Shown here: positions 53,945 through 64,000 of the stretch, one piece after another
Numbering within the stretch: position 1 is the first letter of the stretch
How the letters are laid out: every line of letters begins with the position of its first letter
Origin: Bacteroidales bacterium
GTDB taxonomy: Bacteria; Bacteroidota; Bacteroidia; Bacteroidales; TTA-H9
NCBI GenBank assembly: GCA_030656615.1
Contig: JAUSOY010000077.1
Span: 1 to 64,000, forward strand
Direction of reading: 5' to 3'
DNA length: 64,000 bases
The notes under the pieces: generated by a model
The model's database searches: none
Seen by the model: only the letters and a program-made list of their open reading frames with translations
Told to the model about the DNA's origin: nothing
Program-made: the position numbers and the translations under genes

Positions 53945-55504
53945 ATGGCATTTGAAGATAAAATCAAAGAACTTCTGGAGAAAAGGGAACAGGCTATTCT
54001 CGGCGGAGGTCAAAAGCGAATAGATGCTCAGCATGCAAAGGGAAAACTTACAGCCCGAGAGCGTATTGAATTATTACTGGATGAGGGCAGTTTCGAAGAG
54101 TTTGACATGTTTGTTACCCACCGCTGTACTGAATTTGGGCTTGAAAAGCAACAATTCCTTTCTGATGGTGTAGTAACGGGTCACGGTACTATTGATGGAC
54201 GTGTTGTTTATGTGTTTTCACAGGACTTTACAGTTTTTGGCGGTTCCTTATCGGAGACCTTTGCGCAAAAAATATGCAAAATCATGGATCAGGCCATGAA
54301 AGTTGGAGCACCTTTAATTGGTATCAATGATAGTGGTGGCGCCCGAATTCAGGAAGGTGTGCAAAGCCTTGCAGGTTACGCCGAAATTTTTCAGCGTAAC
54401 ATCATGGCATCGGGTGTAATTCCTCAGATTTCTGCCATTTTTGGCCCCTGTGCCGGAGGTGCGGTATATTCACCCGCCCTCACCGATTTTATCATCATGA
54501 GCAAGCAAACAAGTTACATGTTTGTTACCGGTCCTAAGGTTGTAAAAACAGTCACTGGTGAAGTTGTAACCGATGAGGAGCTTGGCGGGGCTATGGTCCA
54601 TGGGTCAAAATCAGGTATCGCACATTTTGTTGCTGATGATGAACGCGAGGGCATTTTATTGACCCGAAAATTATTAAGTTTTCTACCGCAGAATAACCTG
54701 GAAGATCCTCCATCAATTCCATGCGATGATCCAATTGATCGTCTGGATGATTCGCTCAATTATTTCATTCCCGATAATCCCAACAAACCCTATGATGTTA
54801 AAGACATTATCCATAGCATTGTTGATAATGGTGAGTTTTTAGAAGTACAGCGGCATTTTGCACCAAATATTATCACTGGTTTTGCCCGTTTTAATGGTAT
54901 GCCTATGGGTATTGTTGCCAATCAGCCACAGTATCTGGCAGGTGTACTTGATATTAATGCTTCCCGTAAAGCTGCCCGTTTTGTACGTTTTTGCGATGCT
55001 TTTAATATTCCCATCCTTACTTTGGTGGATGTTCCTGGTTTCCTTCCAGGAACAGCACAGGAATACGGTGGTATAATTATTCACGGGGCAAAACTATTGT
55101 TCGCCTATGGTGAAGCTACCGTTCCTAAAATCACGGTAATTCTTCGCAAAGCCTACGGCGGTGCTTATGATGTAATGAGTTCAAAACACCTTCGTGGAGA
55201 TATCAATTATGCATGGCCAACTGCTGAAATTGCTGTTATGGGACCCAAAGGTGCTATCGAGATATTGCATAGTAAAAACCTGGCTGAAATCACGGATCCG
55301 ATTGAACGCGAAGCTTATACATCTAAAGCGGAGGCAGAATACAAGAAAAAGTTTGCCAATCCGTACAATGCGGCCAAATATGGTTTCATAGATGATGTTA
55401 TCGAGCCGCGCAATACACGTTTCCGTGTTATTAGAGCCTTACAGGCTTTGGCCACGAAAAAGGACACGAATCCTCCTAAAAAACACACCAATATTCCCTT
55501 ATAA
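53945..55504 (+). CDS. mmdA: Methylmalonyl-CoA decarboxylase / acyl-CoA carboxylase carboxyltransferase subunit
   Basis: Carboxyltransferase of 519 residues with two crotonase-like halves. The N-terminal half has [21 protein letters not shown], the oxyanion region [15 protein letters not shown], and [16 protein letters not shown]. The C-terminal half has [27 protein letters not shown] (in parts) and [11 protein letters not shown]. Together with the gamma-like, biotin-carrier and beta genes that follow it forms a membrane sodium pump driven by decarboxylation. The same protein can serve propionyl-CoA carboxylase, but no biotin carboxylase is in the operon, favouring the decarboxylase. Confidence 0.93.
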
Positions 55505-55505
55505 T

Positions 55506-56411
55506 ATGATCAGTATTAAAGCAATATTGAAGGCGTGGAAGTTTGTTTTTATTGTGATGATTTTTGTGCTGGGTATCAATGAAACCCAGGCCCAAAGTGG
55601 ATCCGATTTAAAAATTAATGAAATTCTCGTTTATAACGATTCGAGTTGCGTTGATGATTTCGGTATGCACTCATCATGGATAGAAATTTTTAACACGGCC
55701 TACAATTCGGTTGAAATTGGAGGTTTATACCTTACCAACGACCTGAGTAATCCTAAGAAATATTATATTCCTAAAGGAGATCCTCGTACCATTATTCCTC
55801 CCCGCGGATTTATTGTGTTTTGGGCAGATAGCCGCCCTACACGCGGAATTCTTCATTTGAATTTCGGACTTCAGCATTCCAAAACTCTGGCATTATTCGA
55901 TGCGAATGGACGCACGATGATAGATGTTGTAAAAACAGATAAGGATCATAAGCCTAACATTACCTATGGACGAATTGAAGATGGCGGTACTGCCATGGGT
56001 TTTCTGGATAAAAACACACCCTCAGCCTCTAATGATACCCGGGTAAAGGTAACAGGGGCTCAGATATTCTCTGAAATGGATCCATATGGTGGTGGACTGG
56101 CAATTATTGCCATGTCAGTTGTATTTAGTGCGCTCACTATTTTGTATTTTGTATTCAAGAACGCATCAAGAATCATCGCATTGGACTTTAAAAAGCTGTT
56201 TTCGAGAAAGAAAAAAATTGACATCGCTGTAACTCCAAAAGAAGATATTCCTGGTGAAGTTTGTGCTGCAATTGCAATGGCTTTGTATTCTTACCGTACA
56301 ACGCTTCACGATATTGAAAATACGGTTCTTACTATTAAAAAAATATCCAAAACATATTCTCCCTGGAGTTCTAAGATTTATGGTTTGCGTAAATTGCCCC
56401 GGGGCAACTAA
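55506..56411 (+). CDS. Sodium pump decarboxylase gamma-like subunit fused to a lamin-tail domain
   Basis: A 301-residue protein. The signal peptide (about 1-31, ETQAQ) leads to a lamin-tail domain on the outside (about 32-165; LKINEILVYNDSSCVDDFG, SSWIEIFNTAYNSVEIGG and YLTNDLSNPKKYYIPKGD). A membrane segment (about 193-220; GGGLAIIAMSVVFSALTILYFVF) follows, and a cytoplasmic tail with EVCAAIAMALYSY typical of OadG in Bacteroidota. OadG/MmdD anchors and assembles the pump. The lamin-tail part is additional to classic gamma subunits of ~80-110 residues. The start is ATG 55506, 1 base after mmdA, not the long frame from 55392 within it. Confidence 0.85.
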   Translation: MISIKAILKAWKFVFIVMIFVLGINETQAQSGSDLKINEILVYNDSSCVDDFGMHSSWIEIFNTAYNSVEIGGLYLTNDLSNPKKYYIPKGDPRTIIPPRGFIVFWADSRPTRGILHLNFGLQHSKTLALFDANGRTMIDVVKTDKDHKPNITYGRIEDGGTAMGFLDKNTPSASNDTRVKVTGAQIFSEMDPYGGGLAIIAMSVVFSALTILYFVFKNASRIIALDFKKLFSRKKKIDIAVTPKEDIPGEVCAAIAMALYSYRTTLHDIENTVLTIKKISKTYSPWSSKIYGLRKLPRGN

Positions 56412-56486
56412 ACATGAATAATCCGAAAAAATCAGATTATTCTGAGTGTGTCGGGAATTTATTTTTAATGACGAAATATCAATTCA

Positions 56487-56930
56487 ATGAAAAAGTTTAA
56501 GTTCAATATACATGGCAATCAATACGATGCCGAAATTATTAGTGTTGAAGATAATATTGCCACGGTTGAAATCAATGGCACTTCATACACCGTAGAGGTT
56601 GATAAATCGATTCAGCCTACTAAAACACCGAAATTAGTCAGGTCAGTGTCCGTACCTTCAACCGACAGTCATCCTTCACAAGTCAAAACCAGTGGTCCTG
56701 GATCTCCTAAAGGAAGTGGTAGTATTAAATCGCCACTTCCTGGTACCATTCTCGAACTCTACGTTCGTGAAGGCGACAAGGTAAAAATTGGTCAAAAATT
56801 GTTGATGCTTGAAGCCATGAAAATGGAAAACAATATCAACTCGGATAAGGAAGGGATAGTATTGGCGATTAATAAGCATAAAGGCGATTCGGTTATGGAA
56901 GGCGACGTGCTTATCGTAATAGGAGAATAA
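56487..56930 (+). CDS. mmdC: Biotin carboxyl-carrier subunit of the decarboxylase
   Basis: Carrier of 147 residues. The N-terminal ~60 residues form a small beta-domain (FKFNIHGNQYDAEIISVEDNIATVEINGTSYTVEV, in parts) and a Pro/Ser/Gly/Lys linker follows (about 60-80). The biotinyl domain (about 80-147) has the biotin lysine in EAMKMEN (about residue 113) and the opening SPLPGTILELYVREGD. It moves CO2 from the carboxyltransferase to the membrane beta subunit. It ends 2 bases before the beta gene. Confidence 0.94.
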   Translation: MKKFKFNIHGNQYDAEIISVEDNIATVEINGTSYTVEVDKSIQPTKTPKLVRSVSVPSTDSHPSQVKTSGPGSPKGSGSIKSPLPGTILELYVREGDKVKIGQKLLMLEAMKMENNINSDKEGIVLAINKHKGDSVMEGDVLIVIGE

Positions 56931-56932
56931 TC

Positions 56933-58096
56933 ATGGTAGAGCATACAAGTTTTTTTGAATTTATCGGAGAGCATTTGATGCAGTTTGGCTCTTATACTGC
57001 ATTTGCTAACATGACTGCCGGCCATTTAATAATGATAAGTGTAGGTCTGGTCTTCATTTATCTTGCTGTTGCCAAGGAATATGAACCTCTACTATTGATC
57101 CCTATTGGGTTTGGAATTATTCTGGGGAATATTCCTTTTTATCCTGGACTTAAAGTGGGCATATACGAAAGTGGAAGTGTCTTGAATTATTTATACTTTG
57201 GGGTACTTCAAGGGGTTTATCCCCCACTGATTTTTCTTGGAATTGGTGCAATGACGGATTTTTCCGCGCTTTTATCCAACCCGCGACTGGTATTAATTGG
57301 TGCTGCTGCGCAGCTTGGAATTTTTGCTGCATATGGGGCTGCTCTTGCATTGGGTTTTTCGCCTGCAGAAGCCGGAGCTATCGGAATTATTGGTGGAGCC
57401 GACGGTCCTACAGCTATTTTCCTTTCATCAAAACTGGCCCCGGATTTAATGGGTGCTATTGCAATTTCAGCATATTCATATATGGCACTGGTTCCGGTTA
57501 TTCAACCACCAATTATGCGATGGCTGACGAACAGTAAGGAGCGTACCATTCGTATGAAACCACCGCGTACTGTATCACGTACCGAAAAAATTATTTTCCC
57601 CATTCTTGGATTATTGCTTACCTGCTTTATCGTTCCTTCAGGTCTTCCGCTTTTAGGGATGTTGTTTTTTGGTAATCTATTGAAAGAAAGCGGTGTAACC
57701 AAACGTTTGGCAGATACTGCAAAAGGCCCTATGATTGATGTTGTAACAATTTTACTTGGATTAACGGTTGGCGCATCAACACAAGCCACTACTTTTCTTA
57801 CTGCAAAATCGATTGGGATCTTTGCCCTGGGAGCCTTTAGCTTCATGATTGCGACTTCTGGCGGGGTTCTCTTCGTTAAATTTATGAATCTCTTTTTGAA
57901 GGAGGGTAATAAAATTAATCCGCTCATAGGAAATTCCGGCGTTTCGGCTGTGCCCGATAGTGCGAGGGTTTCGCAGGTTGTGGGCCTCGAATATGATAAA
58001 ACCAACCATTTATTAATGCATGCTATGGGACCGAATGTTGCAGGGGTTATTGGCAGCGCAGTAGCAGCTGGTATAATGTTGAGTTTTTTATACTAA
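56933..58096 (+). CDS. mmdB: Sodium-translocating decarboxylase beta subunit
   Basis: Integral membrane subunit that decarboxylates carboxybiotin and exports sodium. The 387 residues have about nine to eleven membrane segments. The signature GIIGGADGPTAIFLSSKLAP carries the conserved aspartate of the sodium site (about residue 155). Further family segments are SVLNYLYFGVLQGVYPPLIFLGIGAMTDF (in parts) and GPNVAGVIGSAVAAG at the end. It is the last gene of the operon, closed by a strong hairpin. Confidence 0.95.
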   Translation: MVEHTSFFEFIGEHLMQFGSYTAFANMTAGHLIMISVGLVFIYLAVAKEYEPLLLIPIGFGIILGNIPFYPGLKVGIYESGSVLNYLYFGVLQGVYPPLIFLGIGAMTDFSALLSNPRLVLIGAAAQLGIFAAYGAALALGFSPAEAGAIGIIGGADGPTAIFLSSKLAPDLMGAIAISAYSYMALVPVIQPPIMRWLTNSKERTIRMKPPRTVSRTEKIIFPILGLLLTCFIVPSGLPLLGMLFFGNLLKESGVTKRLADTAKGPMIDVVTILLGLTVGASTQATTFLTAKSIGIFALGAFSFMIATSGGVLFVKFMNLFLKEGNKINPLIGNSGVSAVPDSARVSQVVGLEYDKTNHLLMHAMGPNVAGVIGSAVAAGIMLSFLY

Positions 58097-58114
58097 GGAT
58101 TGTATAATTATTTA

Positions 58115-58122
58115 TAATTTTG
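58115..58122 (+). promoter_or_regulatory. Promoter-like box TAATTTTG before udk
   Basis: Perfect TAnnTTTG match 46 bases before the udk ATG. Its predicted start would fall in the left arm of the terminator hairpin, so the two signals interlock. Confidence 0.45.
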
Positions 58123-58161
58123 ATTCCCGTGATAGACTGAAATCTATCACGGGAAATTTTT
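58123..58161 (+). terminator. Terminator of the decarboxylase operon
   Basis: Perfect 13-base arms TTCCCGTGATAGA (58124) and TCTATCACGGGAA (58143) with a 6-base loop, then ATTTTT. It ends only 7 bases before the udk start. Confidence 0.88.
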
Positions 58162-58167
58162 ATCACT

Positions 58168-58782
58168 ATGTTAATTATTGGTATCGCAGGAGGTTCGGGC
58201 TCCGGTAAAACAACCGTTGTCAGACGTATTATTGAGTTACTGCCTCAAAAAGCGGTTTCCGTTATCTCACAGGACTCATATTATTGTGATAATGGGCATT
58301 TATCGGAAGAAGAGCGGGCTAAAATTAATTTTGATCATCCATCATCCATCGAATTCGGTTTACTGGTAAAACATCTGGATGCCCTTATTAAAGGTCAAAC
58401 CATTGAGATGCCCATATATTCTTATTTAACCTGTGCCCGAGCTACTGAAACCATACCGATTCACCCAACCAATGTTATCATTGTTGAAGGAATCCTGATT
58501 TATACCGATGCAGCCCTGCGCAAACGATTGAATGTTAAGGTTTTTGTAGATGCTGATTCCGACGATCGTTTAATGCGCATCATCCGGCGCGATACCGTTG
58601 AACGCGGGCGCTCACTTTCTCAGGCCTTGGGTCATTACGAAACGTATGTTAAGCCCATGCATTTGCAGTTTATAGAACCTACCAAGCGCTATGCCGATAT
58701 TATTGTTCCCCAGGGTGGGGAAAACACGGTGGCCATCGATTTTCTAACTTCCCGTATTTCGCATAAGTTGGGCATTATTTAA
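58168..58782 (+). CDS. udk: Uridine kinase
   Basis: Phosphorylates uridine and cytidine in pyrimidine salvage. The 204 residues are the usual Udk length. The P-loop is GIAGGSGSGKTTV (about 5-17); also present are SQDSYYCDN, NFDHPSSIEFGLL (nucleoside binding), IVEGILIYTDA and the lid region RIIRRDTVERGRS. It lies behind a strong terminator, so it probably has its own promoter. Confidence 0.95.
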   Translation: MLIIGIAGGSGSGKTTVVRRIIELLPQKAVSVISQDSYYCDNGHLSEEERAKINFDHPSSIEFGLLVKHLDALIKGQTIEMPIYSYLTCARATETIPIHPTNVIIVEGILIYTDAALRKRLNVKVFVDADSDDRLMRIIRRDTVERGRSLSQALGHYETYVKPMHLQFIEPTKRYADIIVPQGGENTVAIDFLTSRISHKLGII

Positions 58783-58813
58783 GGATATTCCATTGAAATG
58801 CTTAGGTTTAAAT

Positions 58814-59809
58814 ATGCAAATATCTACAAGTAGGATATTACTTTGCCTTACAGCCGCTTCCATCCTTTTCATTATTTCATCCTGTTCCAAAGCAATCGAC
58901 GAGGATACTTCCTGGATTAAATCGTCGGTATGCCCCGATATTCCTTTGCGTGATGTTGCTTTCAGTGATAACAACTGGTATGCTTGTGGAGGGGTAAAGA
59001 ATAGTAACGGAGGTATTTTCCGCTCAGCGGATTATGGAAAATCATGGACTACTTTACGTCTTAATTTGAATCACAGTTTCAATGCTTTAGGATTCCTGGA
59101 TAATTCGGTAGGGTGGGCTGCTGGAGATTCGCTTTATATGGAAAGAAGTTTTTCAGATGGTTCTTTTTGGAATTTTTATTGGCTGGCTGATAATGTTCCA
59201 CCCAATGAATTTGACCGCACATCCTTTAAGGGCATGCAGATTTTTCAGGATAGCATGATGGCTTTTGCCGGAGGAGATGGTTATGCTAAGGGTTTGTTTT
59301 ATATTTCAAAGGATCGAGGGATGCACTGGTATTTTAAAACCTTTGACCGGGAAATGTCGGATGTGTTTTTCTTCAACGAAAATGAAGGATTGATTTGTGG
59401 CAACGGTGCTATTATGCATACCGTCGATGGAGGACTGAATTTTAATTATGTCACCCCTTCTCATGATTTCTTTACCGGACTCGATTTTGCCAATAGTGGT
59501 CTTGGATTTTGTTGTAGTTATGATGCGAATGTATATACAACAAATGATTATGGTAAAAACTGGGAAGTTCTTCTGAAAATGAATTCAGTATTGTGTAAAA
59601 ATTATCACTTTAATGATATTTCTACCGATGAGTCTGGTAACTGGGTCGCTGTGGGTGATGATGGTATTGTTGTTTTTTCTGATAAAACAGGGAAGGATCG
59701 GAAGATGGTTGTTATCAGTGAGAAACCGAGGTTATTGCGGGTAAAAAGATATCTGAACGAGGTTTTAATTACTTCCGCAAACGGTTGTTTATATCATAAG
59801 GTTTTATAG
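58814..59809 (+). CDS. Ycf48-like beta-propeller lipoprotein
   Basis: A 331-residue exported protein. The signal peptide ends in the lipobox IISSC (about residue 24 from ATG 58814; a TTG start at 58793 adds seven residues). The rest is a seven-bladed propeller of Ycf48/BNR type, with repeated GGIFRSADYGKSWTTL, GLFYISKDRGMHWYF, AIMHTVDGGLNF and VYTTNDYGKNWEVL units. Ycf48 helps photosystem II assembly in phototrophs; bacterial lipoprotein versions have no known substrate. It lies 31 bases behind udk. Confidence 0.8.
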   Translation: MQISTSRILLCLTAASILFIISSCSKAIDEDTSWIKSSVCPDIPLRDVAFSDNNWYACGGVKNSNGGIFRSADYGKSWTTLRLNLNHSFNALGFLDNSVGWAAGDSLYMERSFSDGSFWNFYWLADNVPPNEFDRTSFKGMQIFQDSMMAFAGGDGYAKGLFYISKDRGMHWYFKTFDREMSDVFFFNENEGLICGNGAIMHTVDGGLNFNYVTPSHDFFTGLDFANSGLGFCCSYDANVYTTNDYGKNWEVLLKMNSVLCKNYHFNDISTDESGNWVAVGDDGIVVFSDKTGKDRKMVVISEKPRLLRVKRYLNEVLITSANGCLYHKVL

Positions 59810-59817
59810 TTGTATAA

Positions 59818-59851
59818 CAAAAAAGCTTGCCCGAAATAACGGACAAGCTTT
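59818..59851. terminator. Bidirectional terminator between convergent genes
   Basis: Arms AAAGCTTGCCCG (59822) and CGGACAAGCTTT (59840) with a 6-base loop, flanked by an A run and a T-rich stretch, between the plus-strand propeller gene and the minus-strand coiled-coil gene. Confidence 0.8.
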
Positions 59852-59873
59852 CTATAATTTTTGTTTTTAGGAA

Positions 59874-60773
59874 TTACCGTACGCTAAAGGTGGTTTCGCC
59901 CACCATGGCATCTTCGTAGAAAATCCCTACATGGTAGTTTCCAGTAATGAACTTATCCATCATTGGAAGTTTATTCCAGTAGAGGCATAGTTCTATTGAT
60001 TTATTCTGATAGTCTAAACTACCCGAGATGCTGTACTGGAGGGTTTCTCCCTTATAGTTAAAGGTGTAGTCGTCGCCACGGCCTTTTACCAGAATGGCAC
60101 CATTGGGGTCAGCGATGCGGACAAAAAAGTTCTTTTTCCCAGCGGGAGTAAGAATATTTTCAGAAACGGCAAAGCAGACTTTTATTTTTTCGATGCGTTT
60201 TCCTTTATCCGTTGCTTCTTCACGTCCGCCGCTGCGGTCGCGCATACCGGTGGCGGTGATGTTATATAAAGAAAGCATGGAACCCTGGGTTATTTTTGTA
60301 GCCATCTGTTCTTTATCGCGGTTAAGCGTTTCGTTTTTCCGCTGTTCTTTTTTGAATTCCTCTTTTATTTCCGTGTTTTCACGAGTCAGTTCACGGTTAA
60401 CCGTGTAAAGCGAATCCATTTGTTTGAGATAATTTTGAGAGACCGTACGTAAGCGATTAAGCTTTTTCATCACTTTTACGTATTCCCATTTGGTATCGAG
60501 AAGTTTTCTTATCTCGGTGGCATTGGCCTGGATGATGCTGTCCTTAGCGGAAAGGCTGTCGGCCAGTTGTCCATATTCAGCTTTTATGCGGTTATGTTCT
60601 CCCATTAAGGAGTCGACTTGTTGCTGGAATGAGATTTTTTCCTGGTCTTTAATTCCTTCAACTTCTTTTAGATCGGAGCGGGTACTGAGCCACTGCCATC
60701 CAAAGAAAATAGCGAGTAGAAGAAGAATGCCTAGACCAATCTGTAAGGTTTTGTTGTTGCCTGTTTCTGACAT
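59874..60773 (-). CDS. Single-pass coiled-coil membrane protein, unknown
   Basis: A 299-residue protein with a short cytoplasmic start, one membrane segment (about 9-28), a long coiled coil (about 32-165, E/K/Q/L-rich) and a C-terminal beta-domain (about 190-299; KVCFAVSENILTPAGKKNFFVRIADPNG and SIELCLYWNKLP, in parts). The orientation suggests a rod holding a globular head in the periplasm. Such proteins are conserved in Bacteroidota without known function and are sometimes mislabelled chromosome-partitioning proteins. It has a full promoter. Confidence 0.7.
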   Translation of the reverse strand: MSETGNNKTLQIGLGILLLLAIFFGWQWLSTRSDLKEVEGIKDQEKISFQQQVDSLMGEHNRIKAEYGQLADSLSAKDSIIQANATEIRKLLDTKWEYVKVMKKLNRLRTVSQNYLKQMDSLYTVNRELTRENTEIKEEFKKEQRKNETLNRDKEQMATKITQGSMLSLYNITATGMRDRSGGREEATDKGKRIEKIKVCFAVSENILTPAGKKNFFVRIADPNGAILVKGRGDDYTFNYKGETLQYSISGSLDYQNKSIELCLYWNKLPMMDKFITGNYHVGIFYEDAMVGETTFSVR

Positions 60774-61027: not shown

Positions 61028-62134
61028 TTATTCATTATAAAATGCAGGCAAATTTGGAGAGGTTAATGTAAGAGTTCCATTCGTAATCATGGGAAGGTTT
61101 TCCAGACCTATTTTACCTATGTATAAGCGGTGTATGATTTCTTTTGGTTGCTGTTGCATTTTTAAAAAGCCTCTATAATAAACTAAATCCTTTACGTATG
61201 CAGCATGTAGCGAGGTGTCTGATAGCCCTCGTTTTAATCGAAGGCAGGTTTTCCAGGCTTTATCAAAATCATTGAAATTCAGTTCAAAGCATTCGGTAAA
61301 AAGCTCATAAAAATCACTTGTAAGTGCTTTCTTAGCCATGATTAGACGTAATGCATATCGGTACAAATTTTTATCGGATAGGCAGCCATTCAGATGTTCG
61401 TTGTATATAGCCAGACCTTCTTCCGTTTCTAGGTAATCAGGGAATCCGTACTGAAAAACCTTGTACGATTGCATAGCGCCGTTATGACTTCTGAGAATGT
61501 GGGTATCTATTTCATGAATAATGAGTTGCCTGATTCTTTCCTCGCTGAAAAATGCATTTTCATTGATTTTCAGTTTTTTCTGTAAACTGTTTACAGCAAC
61601 ATCAGCCACCATTTTTGTTATTTCAACGGTCCAGTCATTGTAAAATCTCTGTTTTAGTGCATCTGAAAATGCCAACGCAGCATCCTGTGCTTTAATGGTG
61701 TTAGCGATATTGTTGTTAACGGGATTTGTGCGATTTTTAATTATTTGCTGTGCAGAAGTTAATTCTGCGTCTGTTGGTTCGGCGTATAAACCTGACAGAT
61801 ATGGAAGAAAATCAGCCTGATCTCTACGGTGAAAGAAATGAAGGTGTTGACTGGTTCGTGTACATAGCTCAATATATACTGGCTGTAAGGGCCAGTCGGT
61901 AAATGCTTTCAGCTTACGGATAAAGGTCTCCAGGGTAGAGGCATATCCAGGATGATTAATTTTTTTATAGATAAATTGCGGATTGTATCTGATGTTTTGA
62001 TGAAACAAATGTTGAAAATGCAGTTTTTCTTCATCCTGATTCAAGGGTGTAAAATCATGAAATAACTCAAGTTCTTTCTTGAATTTCCAGAAGCCAATAT
62101 CAAAATCTTTAATAATCTGATCAGTGATTTTCAC
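61028..62134 (-). CDS. DUF1704 (MATCAP-like) zinc carboxypeptidase family protein
   Basis: A 368-residue protein of the DUF1704 family, which includes eukaryotic tubulin tyrosine carboxypeptidases (MATCAP) and bacterial proteins annotated flavohemoglobin expression-modulating QEGLA-motif proteins. The zinc-peptidase signature HEIDTH (about 207-212) is followed by ILRSHNGA, PDYLETEEGLAIYNEH with the third-ligand glutamate region (EEGLA, 238-242), and the closing YVKDLVYYRGFL and IGKIGLENLP. No signal peptide. The start is GTG 62134, overlapping the end of the upstream STAND-like gene by 14 bases, so the two are translationally coupled. Protease activity and target are inferred. Confidence 0.85.
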   Translation of the reverse strand: MKITDQIIKDFDIGFWKFKKELELFHDFTPLNQDEEKLHFQHLFHQNIRYNPQFIYKKINHPGYASTLETFIRKLKAFTDWPLQPVYIELCTRTSQHLHFFHRRDQADFLPYLSGLYAEPTDAELTSAQQIIKNRTNPVNNNIANTIKAQDAALAFSDALKQRFYNDWTVEITKMVADVAVNSLQKKLKINENAFFSEERIRQLIIHEIDTHILRSHNGAMQSYKVFQYGFPDYLETEEGLAIYNEHLNGCLSDKNLYRYALRLIMAKKALTSDFYELFTECFELNFNDFDKAWKTCLRLKRGLSDTSLHAAYVKDLVYYRGFLKMQQQPKEIIHRLYIGKIGLENLPMITNGTLTLTSPNLPAFYNE

Positions 62135-64000
62135 TTTGCAAGTTTTTTAATTCGTTTTCAATATCTAACTTAAGCTTCTCTGATTTTTCAATGGCCAATT
62201 CGTTTTTAGGATTCATACTATTTTTACTTATTAATGCTTTCTGAACATGCACATAGGCCGAATCGAGGTCTTCCTTTGTTTTTCTGTATTTGAAAAGATG
62301 GTATAAGATTTCTGCAACTGTATGCATCGAACTACCAAGAAAGGGGCTGGAGTCGGTTTTATAAATGGCTAAACGCATGTCTTTTGCCTTCACTGCCTTT
62401 TCCAATGCTTCTAACAAAATTGTATACTTTTCATCATTATTCATTTCTTTGTCGTTCATAAATATTTTGAGCTTTAAACTGGCAATATTATTCAGGATAA
62501 GTGCTCGGGCCGTATGAATTTCAGGTAGTTTTTTGTCACGGATGTTGTAGCAAATAGTATAATGCTTAAGTGAGTTTTCGAATTTATTAAGTTTAGAGTA
62601 AATCACCCCTAGGTTATTATGGGTTACGGCTGTTTTTGTATGATCTGGGCCTAGTGTATTTTTATGCAACTCCAAGGCCTGTATTCGGAATTCAATGGAT
62701 TTTTCATTTAATCGTACAAATTCCTCAGGGTCTGTTTTTTCAATTTCATTCGACTTTATACTGGCAGAAAATCCTAAGTTATCGTACGTTAATGCTAACT
62801 CGATGGAGTAATCTGCTGAAGTTTTGTAAAAATTTACACAGTCCTCTAACAGTTTGATGGATAAATCAAAGAGCTTATGTACCCGGTAACTGAGAGCCAG
62901 ATCTCTTTTGATTTTGTACCTTAAATAATCCGGAGGATTATTTAGTGATAAAAAGACTTCATCGGAAAGTATTCGTAAATCCATGGACAGACTTGCATTT
63001 CCATTTTGGCTTGTGAGCTTGGCCATGGTTAACAATAAATCAATTACATCGGGAGTATTTGAAGTGTGAAGGCGCAAGTACATATTTAATCCCTCGTATC
63101 CTACTTTCAGGGCGAAGTCTTTTTCTCCGGAATCACTTAACAAGATAGAACTGGCCTCTAAAAACGAAATTAAACAGACATCGTCATTGACTTTTATATC
63201 ACTTATGTTATTTCTGTTATATACCATTTCCCTGATTTGGCTTGAAAAAGTAGGGTCAGAAATCATTACCTCGGGTAGATTGTGAAAAAAATAGGATATT
63301 ATTGAACGGGTTAAGGGGATAAAAGCCACCATATCGGCAAAGGCCTTTTTAAGGTGGCCTTGTTTGGTGTAGGTAATAATATTCGATATTGTGTTAATGA
63401 ACACTTTAACAGATTCCGGTGAGGGGCTTAATAAGTTGTGGGTTCCTAATTTGGTAATTTCATGAAACTTATACTCTTCGGTTCCTCCTTCTGTATTATC
63501 AATAATCCATCCTTTGTCGCAAAGCCGTCTGAATAGGTAAGTGTCATCCTGTTTAAGAGCAAATATTTCTATAAGAAAGGAGGTGGCATAATATTCTGAT
63601 GGAAGTAAAACGAAGTATTCTAGTATTTTACGCTCGTCATTTGATAATAATTTTATGGTATTATTGAATAGCATTTCTATGTAATTTGCAGTGGTTATAT
63701 CCTGACCCACCTTTTCTTTTATCACAGATGGATTTATGTTTGCCGGTCTATTTTCCAATGGAATTTTTTGGCATAGGTCATCCAGATCAAGGCTGTCATA
63801 GCAGCCGTATTGTTTTCCCAAACATTCGCAGTACAATGGATTGTTGCCTTTTCCCTTAAGATGTTTTTTCAGGGCTTCTTTATCAAAGGGCTTATCTCCG
63901 CTATGTCTTTCAAATATCTTAATACAGTCTTCATCTTCTAATTGAGGAAGTTCGATGTGTTCACAGCCATTGATGTTTTTACAAACACTAGTGATAACCA
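62121..64000 (-). CDS. STAND/NB-ARC-like ATPase with TPR repeats (5' end beyond window)
   Basis: A frame open to the right edge; the first start inside it (TTG 63836) is not the real N-terminus. Translation up to the edge reads VITSVCKN, then IELPQLEDEDCIKIFERH and KNNPLYCECLG, which fits the end of an NB-ARC/AP-ATPase core (sensor-1 VITSR-like, ELPxLxxxxAxxLF, GxPL). A winged-helix-like region follows (KLLSNDERKILEYFVLLP), then TPRs with LALTYDNLGFS and AVTHNNLGVIYSKLNKFENSLKHY. The P-loop lies outside. STAND proteins are signal-activated switches, often in defence. It overlaps the DUF1704 gene. Confidence 0.7.
   Translation of the reverse strand, partial: VITSVCKNINGCEHIELPQLEDEDCIKIFERHSGDKPFDKEALKKHLKGKGNNPLYCECLGKQYGCYDSLDLDDLCQKIPLENRPANINPSVIKEKVGQDITTANYIEMLFNNTIKLLSNDERKILEYFVLLPSEYYATSFLIEIFALKQDDTYLFRRLCDKGWIIDNTEGGTEEYKFHEITKLGTHNLLSPSPESVKVFINTISNIITYTKQGHLKKAFADMVAFIPLTRSIISYFFHNLPEVMISDPTFSSQIREMVYNRNNISDIKVNDDVCLISFLEASSILLSDSGEKDFALKVGYEGLNMYLRLHTSNTPDVIDLLLTMAKLTSQNGNASLSMDLRILSDEVFLSLNNPPDYLRYKIKRDLALSYRVHKLFDLSIKLLEDCVNFYKTSADYSIELALTYDNLGFSASIKSNEIEKTDPEEFVRLNEKSIEFRIQALELHKNTLGPDHTKTAVTHNNLGVIYSKLNKFENSLKHYTICYNIRDKKLPEIHTARALILNNIASLKLKIFMNDKEMNNDEKYTILLEALEKAVKAKDMRLAIYKTDSSPFLGSSMHTVAEILYHLFKYRKTKEDLDSAYVHVQKALISKNSMNPKNELAIEKSEKLKLDIENELKNLQSENH

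What the first reader, a model, noticed from the sequence alone, without database searches (positions are those of the whole stretch)
61028..64000. Coupled STAND/TPR switch and DUF1704 zinc-peptidase-like protein: candidate new two-gene system
A STAND-type NTPase with TPR sensor repeats overlaps by 14 bases a gene with the HEIDTH...EEGLA zinc signature of the DUF1704/MATCAP family. Established: STAND ATPases with sensor repeats act as switches, many in anti-phage defence, often next to or fused to effectors; MATCAP is a carboxypeptidase. Inferred: the ATPase may sense a trigger and unleash or direct the peptidase, a pairing I do not know as a described system. The DUF1704 protein could also be an ordinary metabolic or regulatory enzyme.
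Basis: partly seen in the sequence, partly recalled or inferred. Interest (0 to 1): 0.72.

Follow-up and report, generated by a model that had tools for sequence, protein, structure and literature searches.

The report
STAND switch beside MATCAP-type metallopeptidase
A bacterium carries two overlapping genes, a molecular-switch ATPase and a metal-dependent peptidase that resembles the human enzyme which trims tubulin tails more than it resembles its usual bacterial cousins; they may form a triggered protein-trimming device, but the pair was seen in only one genome.

Summary
Window 61028-62134 (-) encodes a 368-aa MATCAP/DUF1704 protein with HEIDTH and EEG metal motifs.

The peptidase is not the usual bacterial QEGLA form, which sits with or is fused to N-formylglutamate amidohydrolase. 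By motifs (TEEGLA, KRGxxDTS insertion), score against human MATCAP, predicted fold (Z 21.6 to MATCAP) and tree, it falls with DPANN-archaeal and human MATCAP, in a Bacteroidota genome. The ATPase is an orphan in what was searched. The other 8 genomes of the family lack the peptidase, and no other locus examined has the pair.

Best reading: an accessory two-gene device in which the STAND protein senses a trigger by its TPRs and delivers or unlocks a carboxypeptidase that trims the tail of a target protein. Gene overlap and motifs are shown, the fold is predicted; coupling, trigger and target are inferred. Defence is possible but unsupported by neighbours or conservation. New variant of a known kind, moderate interest.

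The parts
61028..62134 (-). MATCAP-type (PF08014) metallocarboxypeptidase-like gene, 368 aa, GTG start
   Evidence: ORF; Pfam 150.3 bits; predicted fold Z 21.6 to human MATCAP 7z5g
61499..61516 (-). HEIDTH metal-binding/catalytic motif, residues 207-212
   Evidence: H207, E208 and H212 invariant in a 39-row alignment that includes the window
61409..61429 (-). ETEEGLA motif with the putative third metal ligand E239, residues 236-242
   Evidence: EEG motif in human TMCP1 described in PMC10499314 (passages)
61211..61234 (-). KRGLSDTS, part of the insertion shared with human MATCAP and DPANN-archaeal proteins, residues 301-308
62121..62134 (-). 14-base overlap of ATPase end and peptidase start
62121..64000 (-). 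STAND-like ATPase gene, C-terminal 625 residues in the window; the gene continues to contig C17 base 64814 (897 aa, ATG); Walker A at residues 158-165 lies beyond the window
63831..63848 (-). GNNPLY, a GxP-like motif of the STAND/NB-ARC core, residues 323-328
   Evidence: sequence; meaning recalled
63450..63650 (-). winged-helix-like region after the ATPase core, residues about 389-455
   Evidence: sequence; assignment by eye
62448..62705 (-). TPR region, residues about 704-789
   Evidence: TPR_12 49.3 bits at 704-759; kinesin light chain TPR matches at 712-780
59874..60773 (-). conserved flanking gene (299 aa), beyond which gene order differs from the family relatives
   Evidence: 7 of 9 family genomes; gene order

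Best explanation
An accessory two-gene unit. The STAND ATPase is a switch: its C-terminal TPR region recognises a trigger, ATP-driven rearrangement or oligomerisation follows, and the MATCAP-type metallopeptidase made from the same message is thereby unlocked or brought to its substrate. The peptidase then removes residues from the exposed C-terminal tail of a host or invader protein, changing or stopping its function. Shown: gene overlap, metal-site motifs, ATPase P-loop, TPR match. Strongly predicted: the MATCAP fold. Inferred: a shared message, that the two proteins act together, the trigger, the substrate, and any role in defence.
For: Overlapping co-directional genes with an overlapping start that has no good alternative. 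116 bases to a divergent gene upstream of the ATPase and 254 bases to the next likely gene downstream of the peptidase, so the two look like their own unit. H207, E208, H212 and E239 are among 23 columns invariant in a 39-row alignment that includes the window. AlphaFold model mean pLDDT 90.9; best match human MATCAP, Z 21.6, 3.0 A over 275 residues, then two putative lipoproteins and carboxypeptidases of the M32 type. Walker A and NB-ARC-like motifs, TPRs. No enzymatic Pfam family in the ATPase N-terminus, so an effector in trans is plausible. Separately encoded peptidases working with an NLR-like ATPase have precedent: LypABC (abstract of PMC13236601), and systems whose effectors lie in adjacent genes and share EAD domains (passages of PMC7159879). 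The pair is absent from the matching place in six family relatives.
Against: One instance only; no conserved adjacency. Only P-loop-level PADLOC matches. Archaeal relatives of the peptidase sit among varied, largely housekeeping genes (by eye). No shared adaptor domain was seen linking the two proteins. The window peptidase departs from near-invariant positions of its family (D for G210, A for G311 and G312, V for T314). Named STAND models stay under their cut-offs. The ATPase model covers only its window part and is poor (pLDDT 40.9).
Confidence: 0.42

Rival explanations
1. The MATCAP-type protein is an independent enzyme, for example a scavenging or regulatory carboxypeptidase like its archaeal relatives may be. 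The STAND gene is an unrelated signalling gene, and the overlap only reflects compact packing in a variable region.
For: The pair is seen once. Archaeal members have varied neighbours: 99 families over 64 neighbours, of which the first 25 are shown, led by CorA 5, PTH2 4, RsmB/F 3, M48 3. Bacterial QEGLA members sit with N-formylglutamate amidohydrolase (57 of 75 upstream neighbours) or ATP-grasp genes (10 of 75), so relatives have other partners.
Against: The start codon lies inside the partner gene, which often means coupled translation. None of the canonical partners is adjacent here. The peptidase is absent from the 8 other family genomes and the ATPase core too, which fits joint gain or loss.
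Confidence: 0.33
2. The pair is an anti-phage (abortive infection) system: the TPRs recognise a phage protein and the peptidase disables an essential host or phage protein.
For: The architecture resembles NLR-like defence (recalled, and abstract of PMC13236601), and the genes are not at this place in six relatives.
Against: Only P-loop-level PADLOC matches in the pair and 8 neighbouring proteins (other window genes were not scanned). No relatives of either protein in 50,697 phage records. Three viral-contig scans confirmed no relative. No conserved association.
Confidence: 0.17
3. The STAND protein is a signalling or transcription regulator whose output is not the peptidase; the peptidase instead processes the regulator or a peptide signal.
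For: Many STAND proteins with a winged helix and TPRs are regulators (recalled).
Against: No DNA-binding Pfam family detected in the ATPase.
Confidence: 0.08

Closest known systems
Human MATCAP / TMCP1 (KIAA0895L), PF08014
   Same: Predicted fold (Z 21.6), HExxxH and EEG metal motifs, KRGxxDTSL insertion, 56.9-bit phmmer match.
   Different: 22% identical over the aligned structure. Encoded in a Bacteroidota beside a STAND-like gene; the genome's one match to the tubulin family is FtsZ by sequence (recalled), whose tail ends NSYLHDNVD, not EEY.
MATCAP-like proteins of DPANN archaea (Nanoarchaeota/Woesearchaeota)
   Same: Highest identity among 80 named loci, 30-32%; same loop insertion in those four; about 350 aa.
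   Different: Varied neighbours; no relative of the ATPase in the archaeal loci held and none of the P-loop-bearing proteins among 64 immediate neighbours looks STAND-like.
Bacterial QEGLA / DUF1704 proteins (TIGR02421)
   Same: Same Pfam family and HExxxH motif.
   Different: Window score 145.7 against a cut-off of 338.65; the 76 other named loci lack the loop insertion; upstream neighbour is FGase in 57 of 75, and one of four examined proteins carries FGase fused.
LypABC (CARD-NLR-like, Caulobacter) and EAD-coupled STAND systems
   Same: ATPase switch with peptidases encoded separately (abstract of PMC13236601; passages of PMC7159879).
   Different: Their peptidases are not called MATCAP-type in the parts seen; no CARD or EAD domain was identified here.

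Membership tests
MATCAP family (PF08014) | Pfam score over the gathering cut-off | tested here: met
   150.3 bits against 27
MATCAP family (PF08014) | HExxxH plus EEG metal site | tested here: met
   HEIDTH 207-212 and TEEG 237-240; H207, E208, H212 and E239 invariant in 39 rows, window included
MATCAP family (PF08014) | MATCAP fold | tested here: met
   Predicted model, pLDDT 90.9; 7z5g_A Z 21.6, 3.0 A, 275 residues; Foldseek ranks it first, E 2.2e-9, though its own alignment has TM 0.51 and rmsd 13.5
MATCAP family (PF08014) | Carboxypeptidase activity on protein tails | not testable with these tools
   Needs an assay
QEGLA equivalog (TIGR02421) | NCBIfam score over the curated cut-off | tested here: not met
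   145.7 against 338.65 bits
QEGLA equivalog (TIGR02421) | FGase or ATP-grasp partner, fused or adjacent | tested here: not met
   Neighbours are the STAND-like gene and a 299-aa gene without a Pfam family over its cut-off; in QEGLA loci FGase is 57 of 75 upstream neighbours
STAND ATPase | P-loop ATPase core | tested here: met
   Walker A at 158-165; AAA_14 27.5 bits against 27
STAND ATPase | Match to a named STAND/NB-ARC model over its cut-off | tested here: not met
   NB-ARC 19.8 against 23.5; nSTAND6 18.6 against 27.7; nSTAND3 16.4 against 27.2. STAND is assigned from motif order and architecture, hence 'STAND-like'
STAND ATPase | C-terminal sensor repeats | tested here: met
   TPR_12 49.3 against 30.1 bits, one stretch
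Known anti-phage system | Match to a described defence component | tested here: inconclusive
   10 proteins scanned; ATPase best mad8 E 9e-4 at the P-loop; ClpX-like neighbour best BrxF E 2.9e-5 at its P-loop
Conserved two-gene system | Adjacency kept in relatives | tested here: not met
   Peptidase in 0 of 8 other family genomes; no ATPase relative in 20 and 57 loci, and in 80 named loci only one weak TPR-region match (L110, E 0.003)

The most novel reading that the evidence does not exclude
A bacterial NLR-like switch has captured a MATCAP of the archaeal/eukaryotic lineage as its effector. When triggered, it trims the C-terminal tail of a cellular or phage protein: regulated tail-trimming as an immune or stress output, related in enzyme to tubulin detyrosination but working without tubulin.
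Probability: 0.2. Interest if true: 0.78.

Novelty: new variant of a known kind. Interest (0 to 1): 0.46.

Why it matters
The papers that my searches list for MATCAP deal, by title and abstract, mainly with eukaryotic tubulin and microtubules, and I found none on the function of a prokaryotic member (the single hits were seen as listings only). A bacterial member of the archaeal/eukaryotic branch with a dedicated ATPase switch would offer a small system in which the ancestral job of these enzymes can be asked directly, and would add C-terminal trimming to the outputs of STAND switches.

Tried and rejected
Rejected: ordinary bacterial QEGLA/DUF1704 enzyme (score far under the cut-off, other motifs, other partners). 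Rejected: window-edge artefact (the ATPase is complete on the contig). Rejected: contamination by an archaeal contig: genes on the window side match family relatives in order, a gliding-motility-type C-terminal domain (recalled) lies at the far end of the contig, and third-position GC of the pair (0.353 and 0.340) lies at the low end of nine window genes (0.34-0.47). FtsZ as substrate was considered: the genome has one match to the tubulin family and its tail lacks the EEY end, so there is no support.

Led nowhere: genome-contig scan with the single protein (29 pattern matches, none confirmed); viral scans; plasmid tblastn with the ATPase (none) and with the peptidase (124 records, all under 60% identity, mostly Sinorhizobium and Rhizobium, several annotated as QEGLA proteins); phage tblastn (none). 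The ATPase N-terminus and core searched in 295 class genomes gave 8 foreign matches at E up to 0.01. Seven were fetched: short, mostly P-loop-centred matches. In four loci (L172-L175) the matched proteins, read by eye, are a secreted protein, Lon-type, helicase and ABC transporter proteins; L176-L178 were judged from the match table only. The eighth, L166, was not inspected. A single-sequence model of the window part of the ATPase was too poor to use. Paper searches gave general conflict-system papers, nothing, or unrelated papers.

Limits: genome samples are draws from larger groups. The pattern scan kept the best 80 of 452 confirmed loci and would miss proteins with odd motifs like this one. 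Only 25 of 99 neighbour families were shown; archaeal flanks were mostly 1.5 kb. Of 35 archaeal places, five came without a locus and were not examined. Of the 20 Bacteroidota loci fetched, L037 (partial match) was left out of alignment A1 and the tree. Only upstream neighbours of QEGLA loci were scanned. Window and human rows are long branches in the tree, so only their side of the QEGLA split is used.

Full report
What is there. Window 61028-62134 (-) is a 368-codon gene whose product matches Pfam MATCAP/DUF1704 at 150.3 bits (cut-off 27). Its GTG start lies 14 bases inside the end of a longer co-directional gene. The overlap has no good alternative: an in-frame stop lies five codons upstream and the next start-type codon is 30 codons in, while archaeal relatives start at about the same alignment position. 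The upstream gene is cut by the window edge. On the 77,245-base contig it spans 62121-64814 and encodes 897 aa. It has Walker A GQRGSGKTT at residue 158, a Walker-B-like stretch at 242, NB-ARC-like motifs at 271 and 323, a winged-helix-like region at about 389-455 and a TPR region near 704-789 (motif meanings recalled). AAA_14 just passes its Pfam cut-off. The named STAND models (NB-ARC, nSTAND3, nSTAND6) stay under theirs, so 'STAND' rests on motif order and architecture. No enzymatic family is found before the P-loop region.

The peptidase is of an unexpected branch. It scores 145.7 bits against a cut-off of 338.65 for the bacterial QEGLA equivalog. It is only 22-26% identical to 19 Bacteroidota DUF1704 proteins (one of the 20 fetched loci, L037, was not aligned). 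The best matches among 80 named loci are four DPANN-archaeal proteins at 30-32%. Human MATCAP scores 56.9 bits with the window protein, 64.6 with one archaeal protein and 33.1 with one flavobacterial QEGLA protein. The window protein, human MATCAP and these four archaeal proteins share a seven-residue insertion with KRGxxDTS; the other 76 of 80 loci lack it, and no RGxxDT[SGF] match is found in 25 Bacteroidota loci. In 32 archaeal rows, RGxxD[TS] is seen in 18, a same-length loop with other letters in 4, and the pattern was not found in 10; TEEG(L/M)A is seen in 27 of 32. So the insertion is common but not universal on the archaeal side. A 48-row tree separates the 19 QEGLA rows from window, human and 27 archaeal rows with support 99/99. 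Window and human are long branches and their exact place is unresolved. The archaeal-type profile, which includes the window row, matches in 33 of 193 genomes of the archaeal phylum.

It may well be an active enzyme. H207, E208, H212 and E239 are invariant in a 39-row alignment that includes the window. The corresponding human enzyme has an HExxxH motif with a putative third ligand in an EEG motif, and its E281A mutant was inactive (PMC10499314, passages). Against this, the window protein departs from near-invariant G210, G311, G312 and T314. The AlphaFold model (pLDDT 90.9) matches human MATCAP at Z 21.6 over 275 residues; two putative lipoproteins follow at 15.3 and 14.6, and carboxypeptidases of the M32 type at 11-13. 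Foldseek also ranks MATCAP first (E 2.2e-9), with TM 0.51-0.58 and large rmsd in its own alignment.

Conservation and setting. The peptidase matches in 1 of 9 family genomes, the own one. The ATPase matches in 2 of 9, the second in its TPR region only. The peptidase as query matches in 8 of 295 order genomes and 19 of 395 phylum genomes, own included. The ATPase gave no other match at 1e-10 in 295 class genomes. Around 20 unnamed and 80 named DUF1704 loci, and in 57 shorter loci, no relative of the ATPase was found, apart from one weak match in the TPR region (E 0.003, L110). Upstream neighbours of the QEGLA forms are N-formylglutamate amidohydrolase in 57 of 75 and glutathione-synthetase-type ATP-grasp in 10 of 75. 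Of 64 immediate archaeal neighbours 4 show a loose P-loop pattern and none of these looks STAND-like; RimK-type ATP-grasp matches in 2 of 64. In two family relatives (L194, L197) genes matching window 55392-60773 are kept in order (the 58793-59809 gene is not seen in L197); beyond them other genes (a 397-aa or 396-aa protein, glycine C-acetyltransferase by recall; in L194 after a 567-aa ORF) stand where the pair is here. In the other four (L195, L196, L198, L199) the 299-aa gene lies in other company on both sides. In none of the six does a gene have its best match in contig 61028-77245. So the pair is not at this place in relatives; whether the other genes of that 16-kb stretch occur elsewhere in them was tested only for one, the ClpX-like gene, whose best family match is 28% identical. 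Third-position GC of the pair is ordinary.

Reading. An ATPase switch with a TPR region, no recognised effector of its own and an overlapping peptidase gene is most simply a two-gene switch-effector unit. Precedents with separately encoded peptidases exist (LypABC, abstract of PMC13236601; adjacent-gene effectors joined by EAD domains, passages of PMC7159879). The weak points are that it is a single instance, that no adaptor domain was seen joining the two proteins, and that PADLOC matches are at P-loop level only. The rival that the two genes merely lie together cannot be dismissed; I give it one chance in three. Tubulin is not available as a substrate in this genome beyond one FtsZ, whose tail differs from EEY.

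Verdict. Its system claim is unproven and fails its own conservation test. The new point is that the peptidase is an archaeal/eukaryotic-type MATCAP in a Bacteroidota, next to a STAND-like protein without close relatives in what was searched.

Noticed in passing
contig G000:C17 70590-75167 (L002:12591-17168), beyond the window: Minus-strand run with an AAA ATPase (595 aa, PF00004), a 272-aa protein, a membrane protein by eye (387 aa) and a 254-aa protein with DRSGSS...LILLSDG motifs like a von Willebrand A domain (recalled) but no family match over a cut-off; possibly a vWA-AAA type module.
   Followed up: no
contig G000:C17 64931-68466 (L002:6932-10467), beyond the window: Genes divergent from the ATPase: a protein with a hydrophobic C-terminal tail, a WG-repeat protein, a ClpX-like AAA protein far under the ClpX cut-off (139 against 359 bits), and a 212-aa orphan.
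   Followed up: partly
L137, L144, L145, L153, L158 (archaeal loci): Matches reported with one in-frame stop; the stop lies within the last seven residues of each matched stretch, so these look like ordinary gene ends.
   Followed up: yes
L033, L038, L047 (QEGLA loci): Long bacterial DUF1704 proteins have an N-terminal part of some 230-290 residues: FGase in L033; no Pfam match at E 0.01 in L038 and L047.
   Followed up: partly
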